Source: Mumia sp. ZJ1417
GTDB lineage: Bacteria; Actinomycetota; Actinomycetes; Propionibacteriales; Nocardioidaceae
DNA: 64,000 nucleotides
Reading direction: 5' to 3'
Assembly: GCF_014127285.1 (NCBI RefSeq)
Contig: NZ_CP059901.1
Coordinates: 2,852,001 to 2,916,000 of the forward strand
Both the position numbers and the translations under genes were made by a program. Of the stretch, positions 49,956-52,646 are shown piece after piece. Each line of letters starts with the position of its first letter. The first letter of the stretch is position 1. Below the pieces are notes generated by a model, which saw only the letters and a program-made list of their open reading frames with translations, did no database searches and was not told where the DNA came from.

Positions 49956-50871
49956 CGAACGATCGTCGCCTCACGACGACCGTCGCTGCGGCAGCCAGCG
50001 CGAGCGCGAGTCCCACGATCGTCAGGGCAGTCAGCGGCTCGCCGTACAGCGCAGCACCCCACAGCGTCGTCACCCCGGGCACCAGGAAGAGGAGGGCGTT
50101 GGTCGAGGTGATGCCAACGCGTTCAATGAGGGCCCAGTAGGCGCCGTACGCGCCGAGCGTCGCCAGAACCACGAGCCAGGCCACCGCCAACCAGAACTTC
50201 CCCGACGCCGGCGGTACGGCGTTCCCGGTGGCAACCGCAAGCACGCTGTAGACGACGGCCGACGCCGCGCAGTGCACGGCGAGCGCACGTCGCGCGGTCG
50301 TGCGGATGACGTCGAGGCGGGACACGAAGGTTGCGCCCACCAAGCTGAGCATCCCGAGAAGTGGCACCGCGTACGCCCACAGCGGCGCTTCGGTGCCCGG
50401 AGACGCCACGTCGGCCCAGGTGACGACGGCAACGCCGAGGAGCCCGAGACCGAGCCCGATCCACTGTCGCCGGCTCGTCATCAGCCCGAGCAGGGGTGCG
50501 GCGAGCGAGGCCACGACGAGCGGCTGGATCCCGTCGATCAGGGCCGTCGTGCCGGTGCTCACGCCGAGCGCGATCGCCCAATAGACGGTCAGCGTGTAGC
50601 CGGTCTGCGAGAGCAGGCCCACGACGACCTGGCCGACGAGCTCGGCGCCGGACCACCTGGCGATCGCGCCACGTCCCCCCGATCGCAGGAACGGAAGGAG
50701 GATCACCGCGACGATGAGGAACCGCCACATCAGAACGGTCAGCACCGACGTGTCCGACGCGGTCAGCTTGGCGCCGACGAAGCCCGAGGACCAGCACACG
50801 ACAAAGCCGACCGCGAGGACGACGGTGACGAGAGGTGCGGATCGAGGTATACCGATCGGTTTATCTCTCAT
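49909..50871 (-). CDS. EamA/DMT superfamily transporter
   Basis: The 320-residue protein has ten TM segments in two EamA repeats. The first includes VLAVGFVVCWSSGFVGAKL, and the second GMLSLVGATFVSRLDVIRTT then ITSTNALLFLVPGVTTLWGA. It probably exports a metabolite. The C-terminal residues (RRRSFARPHRAPRASRGPCR) look unusual and may be out of frame near an adjacent break. It is divergent from a TetR gene, with two copies of the same palindrome around its start. The nearer copy even lies within its first codons. Confidence 0.85.
   Translation of the reverse strand: MRDKPIGIPRSAPLVTVVLAVGFVVCWSSGFVGAKLTASDTSVLTVLMWRFLIVAVILLPFLRSGGRGAIARWSGAELVGQVVVGLLSQTGYTLTVYWAIALGVSTGTTALIDGIQPLVVASLAAPLLGLMTSRRQWIGLGLGLLGVAVVTWADVASPGTEAPLWAYAVPLLGMLSLVGATFVSRLDVIRTTARRALAVHCAASAVVYSVLAVATGNAVPPASGKFWLAVAWLVVLATLGAYGAYWALIERVGITSTNALLFLVPGVTTLWGAALYGEPLTALTIVGLALALAAAATVVVRRRSFARPHRAPRASRGPCR
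50848..50863. promoter_or_regulatory. TetR operator copy 1 (inside the start of the EamA gene)
   Basis: TATACCGATCGGTTTA is a copy of the palindrome ATACCGATCGGT. It falls in codons 3-8 of the EamA gene as annotated, encoding KPIGIP. A repressor bound here would block elongation or initiation. Confidence 0.7.
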
Positions 50872-50881
50872 CTCCGCAGAC

Positions 50882-50897
50882 TATACCGATCGGTGTA
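50882..50897. promoter_or_regulatory. TetR operator copy 2 overlapping two promoters
   Basis: TATACCGATCGGTGTA is the second copy. It overlaps the -10 of the TetR gene (TATTCT at 50896-50901, six bases before ATG 50908) and, on the other strand, TATAGT eight bases before the EamA ATG. A TetR repressor would control both genes at once. Confidence 0.75.
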
Positions 50898-50907
50898 TTC
50901 TGACCAA

Positions 50908-51480
50908 ATGGAATCTGCCATCGGCTGGACCCCCAAGGCTCGCGCCGTACTCGCGGCTGCGTCCGAGCTCTTCTACTCCCAGGGCATCCACGCTGTCGGC
51001 GTCGATGCGATCGCCGAGCACGCTGGGGTGACGAAGAAGACCCTGTACGACCGGTTCGGATCCAAGGACCGCCTTGTCGTCGAATACCTCGTCGACCGCG
51101 AGCAGCGGTGGCGCGACTTCCTGCTCCCCCGGCTCGAGGCCGCAGGCACAGACCCCGCCTCCCGGCTGGCGGCGATCTTCGACGCCGTCGCGATCTGGTC
51201 GGGCGACCACGGCGGCAAGGGGTGCAGCATGATCAACGCGCATGCCGAGATCAGCGACCCGTCACATCCGGCGTACGCGGTGATCATCGAGCAGAAGCGG
51301 TGGACCCTCGCGCTCTTCGCGGACCTCGCCCGCGACTCCGGTGCCGCCGACCCCGGCGCGGTGGCGGAGGACCTGATGATCCTGCACGAGGGAGCCATGG
51401 TCACCGCGGGCATGGGGATCGTGCCGTCCGCGTACGACCGGGCGCGCGAGGCCGCGCTCAGACGCCTCCGCGCAGGCTGA
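50908..51480 (+). CDS. TetR family transcriptional regulator
   Basis: The 190-residue protein has helix-turn-helix AASELFYSQGIHAVGVDAIA and HAGVTKKTLYDRFGSKDRLV. Its C-terminal domain has GCSMINAHAEISDPSHPAYA. This group controls efflux pumps in response to drugs. The ATG at 50908 is set by TATTCT six bases upstream; the longer open frame overlaps the EamA gene and is spurious. The divergent EamA exporter and two shared palindromes make it the exporter's repressor. Confidence 0.93.
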   Translation: MESAIGWTPKARAVLAAASELFYSQGIHAVGVDAIAEHAGVTKKTLYDRFGSKDRLVVEYLVDREQRWRDFLLPRLEAAGTDPASRLAAIFDAVAIWSGDHGGKGCSMINAHAEISDPSHPAYAVIIEQKRWTLALFADLARDSGAADPGAVAEDLMILHEGAMVTAGMGIVPSAYDRAREAALRRLRAG

Positions 51481-51501
51481 GCGCCCGGGTCACTCTGTGG
51501 C

Positions 51502-51507
51502 TAGACT
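51502..51507 (+). promoter_or_regulatory. -10 element of leaderless promoter (TAGACT)
   Basis: TAGACT is six bases before the GTG at 51514. It is the best evidence that the unusual Ser-repeat ORF is a real gene. Confidence 0.5.
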
Positions 51508-51513
51508 GCCGCC

Positions 51514-51810
51514 GTGCTCTCGTGGCGTTCGAAGAACTCGTTCTTGTCGATCTGTTCCGAGAGCTCGGTGCTGTCCATCGGGAGCATCGGGTCGATCGCC
51601 TCGATCGGGTCGATCGGTTCGGTCCTGTCTGCCGGGTCGCTCGGATCCGTGATGTCGGCCATGTCGATGCTCTCGCACCAGAGCAACTGCTCCATCCTGT
51701 GTCGGCAGAGCAACTGCTCGATCCTCAGCGACCAGAGCAGCACCTCGATCCTCAGCCGGCGCAAGAACAGGTCGGTGCTGAACCGCCGGCACTCTCGCTC
51801 GACGGGCTGA
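51514..51810 (+). CDS. Serine-every-third-residue repeat protein
   Basis: The 98-residue product is a chain of Ser-X-X tripeptides, with two sections. Residues 18-52 are SIG/SVL type (SVLSIGSIGSIASIGSIGSV). Residues 54-90 are nonapeptides of form xQSNCSILS (HQSNCSILC, RQSNCSILS, DQSSTSILS, then RRKNRSVLN). There is no signal peptide or TM. The even period suggests a solenoid or fibrous fold, but I know of no named family. The leaderless -10 and its own slot between a TetR gene and the convergent MBL gene support expression. Confidence 0.65.
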   Translation: MLSWRSKNSFLSICSESSVLSIGSIGSIASIGSIGSVLSAGSLGSVMSAMSMLSHQSNCSILCRQSNCSILSDQSSTSILSRRKNRSVLNRRHSRSTG

Positions 51811-51818
51811 CCCGCGAC

Positions 51819-52646
51819 TCAGCCGCTGGTCGCGATCCCGGTCTCGTCGTCGTGGTCGCCGCGGACCCACGCGATGTGGCGAGCGGCGGAGTACGCGAGC
51901 ACCGCCTTCGCGTCGCGGTCGATCGGATTGCCGAAGTTGCCGATGATGCGGTCGAAGTCGAGCGTCGCGAGCCGGTCCGCGATCGCTTGGACGACGGCGG
52001 CCGACAGCGGGATCTTGTTCGGATAGCTGCGCAGGAAACCCAGCGACGCGCGGTCGGGGTTCGGGAACACGGTGTCGCCGCTGAGCAGGAGGCCTCGCCC
52101 CGTGGAGTCGTCGGCCCAGTGCGCGACCGCGGATCCCGCGAAGTGGCCCCCGATGCGGTGCAGGCTCAGGCCGGGTGCGAGATCGACATCGTCCTCCCAC
52201 ACCGCGATGCGCTCCGTACGACGGCCGATCCACTCCGCGTCCGACGCGCACACGAGCACGGGCGCGTCGAGTGCATCGCCCCACGCGGTCTGGACGCCGA
52301 ACATGTGCGGGTGGCTCGCGGCGACCGCCAGCACAGGACCGCGGTCGAGGATCCGCGCGGCGGTCTCGTCGTCGACGTAGCCGGGCGGGTCCCAGAGCAG
52401 CGAGCCCTGGGCCGTCGTCACGAGCTGGGAGGTCTGACCGATCCCGACCGTCGGCTTGGTCCTGATCTCCGCACGGCCCGGCTCGCGCTCGGCGACGACC
52501 AACTGCTGGCCGGCGGCGGCGAGGTCCGCGCTCGTGGTCCAGCGCTGCCCGTCCGCCGGCACCCACTGACGCTCGTCGGCGCAGATCGGGCACACCTCCG
52601 GCAGAGGCTCGCTGAACTCGACGCCACACGTGGCACAGATCCGCAT
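51819..52646 (-). CDS. MBL-fold metallohydrolase-like protein with N-terminal zinc ribbon
   Basis: The 275-residue protein has a zinc-ribbon with Cys4, Cys7, Cys19 and Cys22, then an MBL-like domain with SHPHMFG, an altered form of the usual HxHxDH site, GGHFAGSAVAHWADDSTG and LLLSGDTVFPNPD. The core Asp-His pair of true beta-lactamase-fold hydrolases is thus partly replaced, so the metal site may be single or changed. GGGGGAG precedes the ATG at 52646. The long frame beyond it is not coding. Confidence 0.85.
   Translation of the reverse strand: MRICATCGVEFSEPLPEVCPICADERQWVPADGQRWTTSADLAAAGQQLVVAEREPGRAEIRTKPTVGIGQTSQLVTTAQGSLLWDPPGYVDDETAARILDRGPVLAVAASHPHMFGVQTAWGDALDAPVLVCASDAEWIGRRTERIAVWEDDVDLAPGLSLHRIGGHFAGSAVAHWADDSTGRGLLLSGDTVFPNPDRASLGFLRSYPNKIPLSAAVVQAIADRLATLDFDRIIGNFGNPIDRDAKAVLAYSAARHIAWVRGDHDDETGIATSG

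What the first reader, a model, noticed from the sequence alone, without database searches (positions are those of the whole stretch)
51514..51810. Protein with serine at nearly every third residue and nonapeptide repeats
A 98-residue chain with SIG/SVL tripeptides followed by xQSNCSILS nonapeptides. The regular period could build a fibrous, polyproline-II or beta-solenoid structure with a serine-lined face, and Cys sits at fixed repeat positions. The nucleotide repeats use different serine codons (TCG, AGC, TCC), which argues for selection on the protein rather than simple DNA slippage. It has its own promoter and I know no named family.
Basis: partly seen in the sequence, partly recalled or inferred. 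Interest (0 to 1): 0.75.

Follow-up and report, generated by a model that had tools for sequence, protein, structure and literature searches.

The report
Conserved serine-triplet repeat small protein
A small bacterial protein built from about 29 three-residue units, nearly every one carrying a serine, belongs to a real, unnamed family found in many actinobacteria, often with a likely membrane anchor; what it does is not yet known.

Summary
The 98-codon ORF at 51514-51810 has 31 serines, 28 in one phase of three (0 of 100,000 shuffles reach that). It belongs to an unnamed protein family: 43 of 197 Nocardioidaceae genomes and 8 of 396 genomes drawn across the phylum match at E<=1e-18 (window genome included in both; lower bounds). 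Conserved Ser columns switch between TCN and AGY codons (17 of 21); the + frame is under purifying selection, more than the antisense frame. The array keeps one nonapeptide register and a narrow length, 21-31 triplets. A -10-like hexamer ends 6 or 7 nt before the start codon in 39 of 51 members, the signature of a leaderless mRNA. Half of the members (25 of 50) end in a membrane-helix-like segment; the window's clade instead has xQSNCSILS units and an Arg-rich tail. No widely shared neighbour gene was found, and no Pfam, NCBIfam, PDB, PHROGs or PADLOC family at a credible score. AlphaFold2 gives no confident fold, so the fibre or solenoid idea stays open. Function: inferred only.

The parts
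51514..51810 (+). Ser-x-x array protein, 98 aa, GTG start, TGA stop
   Evidence: homologues; purifying selection
51502..51507 (+). -10-like hexamer TAGACT, 6 nt before the GTG (leaderless start)
   Evidence: the last 17 nt before the start are 88-94% identical in three same-genus loci while the 60 nt before that are 22-30% identical; family-wide position
51520..51774 (+). array of 29 Ser-x-x triplets (residues 3-87; 28 carry Ser or Cys in phase)
51565..51675 (+). central S-(V/I/A)-(L/A/M or G) nonapeptide stretch, residues 18-54
51676..51756 (+). three xQSNCSILS-type nonapeptides, residues 55-81, the mark of the window's own clade
51757..51807 (+). Arg-rich C-terminal tail, residues 82-98, in the place where many other members have a membrane-helix-like segment
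50908..51480 (+). upstream neighbour, TetR-family regulator; not shown to belong to the system
   Evidence: PF00440, E 2.2e-16
51819..52646 (-). downstream convergent neighbour, metallo-beta-lactamase-like; a similar gene is downstream in one other same-genus locus (L092), not in L093
   Evidence: (PF00753 E 0.0013, 19.1 bits, below the 22.7 cut-off)

Best explanation
It is a small, stand-alone protein, probably made from a leaderless mRNA, and a member of a widespread but unnamed actinobacterial family. Shown: the chain is an array of Ser-x-x triplets of narrow length in nonapeptides, roughly S-(I/V)-(L/A) S-(I/V)-G S-(I/V)-G, kept by selection on the protein, and half of the members carry a C-terminal hydrophobic segment, usually with Arg at the very end. 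Inferred: the protein sits at the membrane, held by the C-terminal helix in those members and perhaps by the Arg-rich tail in the window's clade. Inferred, less surely: the three-sided pattern (a Ser stripe, an aliphatic stripe and a Gly/small stripe) lets many copies pack side by side into an ordered, Ser-lined polymer or patch on the membrane, so that it works as a small structural or coating protein and not as an enzyme or DNA-binding protein. My estimates: real protein family 0.97; membrane-associated 0.6; ordered self-assembly 0.35.
For: Homologues in differing gene contexts. 21 Ser columns conserved at 80% or more in 45 sequences, 17 of them using both TCN and AGY codons. dN/dS 0.14-0.34 in the 15 pairs of the closest six (ratios taken). 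39 of 51 starts have a NANNNT hexamer at 6 or 7 nt where about 1 per spacing is expected; a G two bases before the hexamer in 30 of 40, no conserved -35. C-terminal hydrophobic segment in 25 of 50, modelled as a helix in L040 (residues 101-119, block means 67 and 80). Array length 21-31 triplets, 39 of 51 members at 22-26. One nonapeptide register. The arrays are hydrophobic: highest 19-residue Kyte-Doolittle means 1.1-1.9.
Against: No confident fold. 25 of 50 members have no such segment by the threshold used, the window's protein among them. Charges do not settle the topology: mean K+R 2.4 on the N side and 3.1 on the C side of the segment. No widely shared partner gene hints at a task. The gene is dispensable: 2 of 6 genomes of the window's genus lack it with every candidate scored. 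No expression or protein data were seen.
Confidence: 0.38

Rival explanations
1. The array has no ordered structure: it is a disordered or membrane-embedded low-complexity chain (a small membrane protein, a condensate former or a membrane-disturbing peptide) in which the Ser period only sets solubility.
For: AlphaFold2 leaves the array at block means of 40-54; array hydropathy is close to that of membrane segments.
Against: Near-invariant Ser positions, a nonapeptide register and a narrow length are more than disorder would need.
Confidence: 0.3
2. It is a precursor of a modified peptide (RiPP), like the His-Xaa-Ser repeat peptides or the TVGG-repeat peptide TvgA, with Ser, Val or Ile of each unit altered by a radical-SAM or other enzyme encoded elsewhere.
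For: 37 of 45 members touch NCBIfam HxsA4 weakly (E<=0.1; best 6e-5); TvgA is a repeating T-V-G-G precursor (PMC9062424, abstract and passages).
Against: The window protein scores 17.3 bits against HxsA4's cut-off of 55; searched in 20 member genomes, HxsA4 matches at E<=1e-5 in 4, none over its cut-off and none at the array gene. HxsC passes its cut-off in 0 of 20 genomes; weaker matches in 15 of 20 are of the sort that also ring in 13 of 14 control genomes. LanC-like matches in 8 of 20 genomes, none within 6 kb of the gene. Of the radical-SAM matches listed, those within 6 kb are in 3 of 20 genomes, in genes that read to my eye as the tRNA enzyme MiaB (the list was cut short). No widely shared neighbour.
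Confidence: 0.1
3. Tandem-repeat DNA that happens to be open; no protein function.
For: 9-bp and 27-bp tandem repeats are present; in another phylum the profile does hit plain short-period arrays; one locus, L044, reads as frame-broken.
Against: Codon-box switching at conserved Ser, dN/dS 0.14-0.34, promoter placement, length-constrained arrays, in-frame hydrophobic tails.
Confidence: 0.03
4. A regulatory leader peptide that senses charged Ser-tRNA for a downstream gene.
For: Ser-rich and short; standard logic of attenuators (recalled).
Against: No widely shared downstream gene; by crude gene calling the next gene is on the opposite strand in 10 of 20 loci; mixed Ser codons; conserved residues besides Ser; hydrophobic tail.
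Confidence: 0.02
5. The real gene is the antisense frame (51501-51764, - strand) that shares third positions with this one.
For: It is open in the window over 87 codons.
Against: Stops in 3 of the 6 closest members; dN/dS 0.36-0.96, above the + frame in each of the 15 pairs.
Confidence: 0.01

Closest known systems
His-Xaa-Ser repeat proteins (NCBIfam HxsA4, NF038313)
   Same: Ser in every third place; weak profile contact in 37 of 45 members
   Different: His is not a fixed part of the repeat; far below the cut-off; the partner HxsC is not found above its cut-off in any of 20 genomes
TvgA, TVGG-repeat RiPP precursor (PMC9062424, abstract and passages seen)
   Same: Small repeat of a hydroxyl residue, a branched aliphatic and Gly
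   Different: Four-residue unit, set in a five-gene cluster with a radical-SAM enzyme; ours is three/nine-residue and stand-alone
Polyproline-II bundle antifreeze proteins of Collembola (PMC10235112, passages seen)
   Same: Tripeptide period, which fits three residues per turn
   Different: Those have Gly at every third residue facing inward (G-X1-X2); here the near-invariant residue is Ser, and Gly fills only part of one other position
Leaderless small-protein genes of mycobacteria (PMC4633059, passages seen)
   Same: -10 element directly ahead of an ATG/GTG that is also the transcript start, no Shine-Dalgarno enrichment
   Different: This is a mode of expression, not a protein family; here the transcript start is inferred

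Membership tests
His-Xaa-Ser repeat protein HxsA4 | Profile score over the curated cut-off (55 bits) | tested here: not met
   17.3 bits for the window protein
His-Xaa-Ser repeat system | Radical-SAM partner HxsC in the genome | tested here: not met
   0 of 20 member genomes over the cut-off (the 14 control genomes hold no positive either); HxsB and HxsD not searched
His-Xaa-Ser repeat system | His as the first residue of each repeat unit | tested here: not met
   the two residues between serines are mostly I/V/A and G/L/A
RiPP precursor of the TvgA kind | Radical-SAM gene next to the precursor | tested here: inconclusive
   within 6 kb in 3 of 20 genomes, genes that read as MiaB; the match list was cut short
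Polyproline-II antifreeze / collagen-like triplet proteins | Gly at every third residue | tested here: not met
   Ser holds the fixed place; alignment
Beta-solenoid or other known repeat fold | Predicted or solved coil structure | tested here: inconclusive
   AlphaFold2 mean pLDDT 48.7 and 53.1, no strands; the 8 PDB profile matches at E<=1 start at E 0.009, the three shown being Gly-Ser linkers and a Ser-rich stretch
Leaderless mRNA | -10-like element 6-7 nt before the start codon | tested here: met
   39 of 51 starts chosen without looking upstream
Leaderless mRNA | Transcript start mapped at the start codon | not testable with these tools
   no RNA data

The most novel reading that the evidence does not exclude
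A new repeat fold: each nonapeptide (three Ser-x-x triplets) is one structural unit, and copies stack or assemble into a Ser-lined fibre or sheet anchored in the actinobacterial membrane, a minimal self-assembling surface or inner-membrane scaffold shared across the phylum.
Probability: 0.17. Interest if true: 0.8.

Novelty: new variant of a known kind. Interest (0 to 1): 0.5.

Why it matters
A conserved, patchily held gene family that the searched libraries do not name and that looks like low-complexity sequence is easy for annotation to skip. The near-invariant Ser ladder, nonapeptide register, narrow length and exchangeable C-terminal end make a simple system for asking how a very simple sequence code builds a protein, and whether Actinobacteria have an undescribed membrane-linked structural protein. 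The leaderless placement also gives a marker by which further members can be told from plain short-period DNA arrays.

Tried and rejected
Antisense frame and DNA-only repeat: rejected on codon evidence. Rfam element: none in 50800-52600 at gathering score. Phage or plasmid gene: 6 and 54 pattern matches in viral contigs, none confirmed; none in phages or plasmids, one member protein per query; tblastn masks low-complexity queries, so these negatives are weak. Conserved operon or partner: shared neighbours in at most 5 of 53 loci with 1.5 kb flanks and at most 4 of 26 with wider flanks, mostly close relatives. His-Xaa-Ser system, LanC and radical-SAM neighbours. Structure search with the models was not run because both have low confidence. 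Members outside Actinomycetota: 11 of 288 genomes of the phylum of the Verrucomicrobiota MAG gave E<=1e-6, but on reading them the ten others are plain short-period arrays; the MAG's own contig is 8.9 kb and could be misbinned. So weak hits (E 1e-6 to 1e-15) are not counted as family. A recalled repeat motif of another modified peptide gave only unrelated papers in the listing.

Own errors and limits: the Pfam/NCBIfam query window:51819-52584:- was out of frame and its negative means nothing; Pfam was redone in frame, NCBIfam was not. In one search the start choice favoured -10-like elements; one search repeats the test with starts chosen without looking upstream. The 51 starts share ancestry, so the P-values are only a guide. 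The array lengths rest on my own gap rule. 12 of the 43 strong matches carry one stop in the aligned stretch; in the 8 of these that were fetched as loci the array itself is open (80-118 aa), the other 4 were not read. One search failed after building a tree because one row stood in two groups; reran it.

Rows dropped: of 53 distinct ORFs at E<=1e-15 among 90 loci, L044 (reads as frame-broken) and L045 (no start found) were left out of the counts on 51; the near-duplicate L031 also from the counts on 50; alignment A3 and the tree hold 45 of the 53.

Full report
What is there. The + strand ORF 51514-51810 reads VLSWRSKNSFLSICSESSVLSIGSIGSIASIGSIGSVLSAGSLGSVMSAMSMLSHQSNCSILCRQSNCSILSDQSSTSILSRRKNRSVLNRRHSRSTG. 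Ser makes up 31 of 98 residues and 28 of these lie in one phase. The window lies in a 4.19 Mb single-contig genome. A genome of the same genus (G001) has a contig of the same length and the same locus as Mumia xiangluensis (loci L003 and L026), so the window is very probably from Mumia, Nocardioidaceae.

It is a protein family. A one-sequence search gave matches in 24 of 98 related genomes at E<=0.01, the weakest of them low-complexity by eye. A profile of 19 sequences (A1) gave 66 of 197 family genomes and 39 of 396 phylum genomes at E<=1e-3. Only 23 and 11 candidates per genome were scored, so presence is a lower bound; weak hits are unreliable, as a search in another phylum showed. At E<=1e-18 the counts, read from the tables, are 43 of 197 and 8 of 396 (11 of 396 at E<=3.2e-17), the window's genome included in both. 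In the window's genus 4 of 6 genomes have a member, and for the two without one every candidate was scored. Named members: Mumia xiangluensis, a Marmoricola MAG, Nostocoides jenkinsii, a Solirubrobacterales MAG, an Actinomycetota MAG and a Verrucomicrobiota MAG.

Selection acts on the + frame. In the 45-row alignment A3, 21 columns (filled in at least 36 rows) are Ser in at least 80% of rows, and 17 of these use both TCN and AGY codons (811 TCN, 109 AGY), boxes that no single base change connects without leaving Ser. Among the six closest members, dN/dS is 0.14-0.34 in the + frame and 0.36-0.96 in the antisense frame that shares third positions; the antisense frame has stops in three of the six. 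Against: one locus, L044, reads as frame-broken.

Expression. The last 17 nt before the start codon are 88-94% identical in three loci of the genus while the 60 nt before them are 22-30% identical. With starts chosen without looking upstream, a NANNNT hexamer ends exactly 6 nt (29 of 51) or 7 nt (10 of 51) before the start codon, where about 1 per spacing is expected; strict TANNNT occurs at 6 nt in 12 and at 7 nt in 4, with 0.03 expected per spacing. In the 40 loci with such a hexamer listed there is a G two bases ahead of it in 30, as in extended -10 promoters (recalled), and no conserved -35. This is the layout described for leaderless mycobacterial genes in PMC4633059 (passages seen). It is a signature, not a mapped transcript.

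Anatomy. The array has 21-31 triplets, 39 of 51 members between 22 and 26. Between serines the first residue is mostly I, V, A, L or F and the second G, L or A. The Gly/non-Gly state repeats every three triplets, 0.72 agreement against a shuffled mean of 0.53, so the SIG part and the SNCSIL part read as one nonapeptide array. A Trp near the start is common, and often there is another near the end. After the array, 25 of 50 members have a 17-residue stretch of Kyte-Doolittle mean 1.6 or more with no charge in its core, 11 have a tail without one (four of these, L007, L011, L079 and L087, are borderline), and 14 have a tail shorter than 17 residues. AlphaFold2 makes that stretch a helix in L040 (residues 101-119, block means 67 and 80) and leaves the array without confident structure; the window protein has mean pLDDT 48.7 with a low-confidence helix at 30-84.

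Clades and movement. The six SNCSIL members form one clade (support 100/100) that joins three genomes of the window's genus, two other Nocardioidaceae and one genome of another family (G078), while a fourth genome of the genus (G003, L015) falls in another group, on a long branch whose place is unsure (the bootstrap had not settled). With the absence from 2 of 6 genomes of the genus this suggests gain and loss or horizontal transfer. Shared neighbours were found in at most 5 of 53 loci (1.5 kb flanks) and at most 4 of 26 loci (wider flanks), mostly between close relatives.

Known families. Nothing in Pfam for the window protein, for the 19 members of A1 at a credible score (best E 0.08) or for two tailed members; in PADLOC one family and in PHROGs two, each touched by 1 of 45 members at E 0.005-0.009; PDB matches begin at E 0.009 and the three shown are Gly-Ser linkers and a Ser-rich stretch. 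NCBIfam gives only a weak HxsA4 contact in 37 of 45 members, below its cut-off, and the HxsC partner is not found above its cut-off in 20 genomes. Literature: the strings SVLSIGS and GSVGSVLS occur in 0 papers; the word searches gave 0 papers, and those gave 1 and 2 papers that from the listing do not concern this family. That is a statement about these searches of an open-licence library, not about all print.

What it most likely does. From the anatomy I favour a membrane-linked, self-associating structural protein; the steps from 'array plus tail' to 'membrane' and from 'three-sided period' to 'ordered polymer' are inference. The plain alternative, a disordered or membrane-embedded low-complexity chain, is nearly as likely.

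Noticed in passing
L113, L123, L125-L130 (genome G712); L114-L122, L124 (nine other genomes of that phylum): Short-period arrays coding S-V-G, S-V-D, S-V-C, S-I-N or similar runs, eight matches in G712 alone; they look like microsatellites and mimic the family's profile.
   Followed up: partly
L096, L097, L099 (genomes G033, G582, G615): In three genomes of one genus (g7) the gene lies beside a gene that reads to my eye as miaB; L096 and L097 also share ABC-transporter genes on the other side.
   Followed up: partly
window 51819-52646 (-): Zinc-ribbon-like N-terminus (two Cys-x-x-Cys pairs, by eye) followed by a metallo-beta-lactamase-like domain (PF00753 below cut-off), convergent with the ORF; a similar gene lies downstream in L092.
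   Followed up: partly
L028 3490-4018; L103 10739-11258; L104 11647-12169: A similar gene (MAIVEPGAG... in L028) lies about 0.25 kb from the array gene in a Solirubrobacterales MAG and 4.5-5.4 kb away in two Nocardioidaceae genomes; perhaps chance.
   Followed up: no
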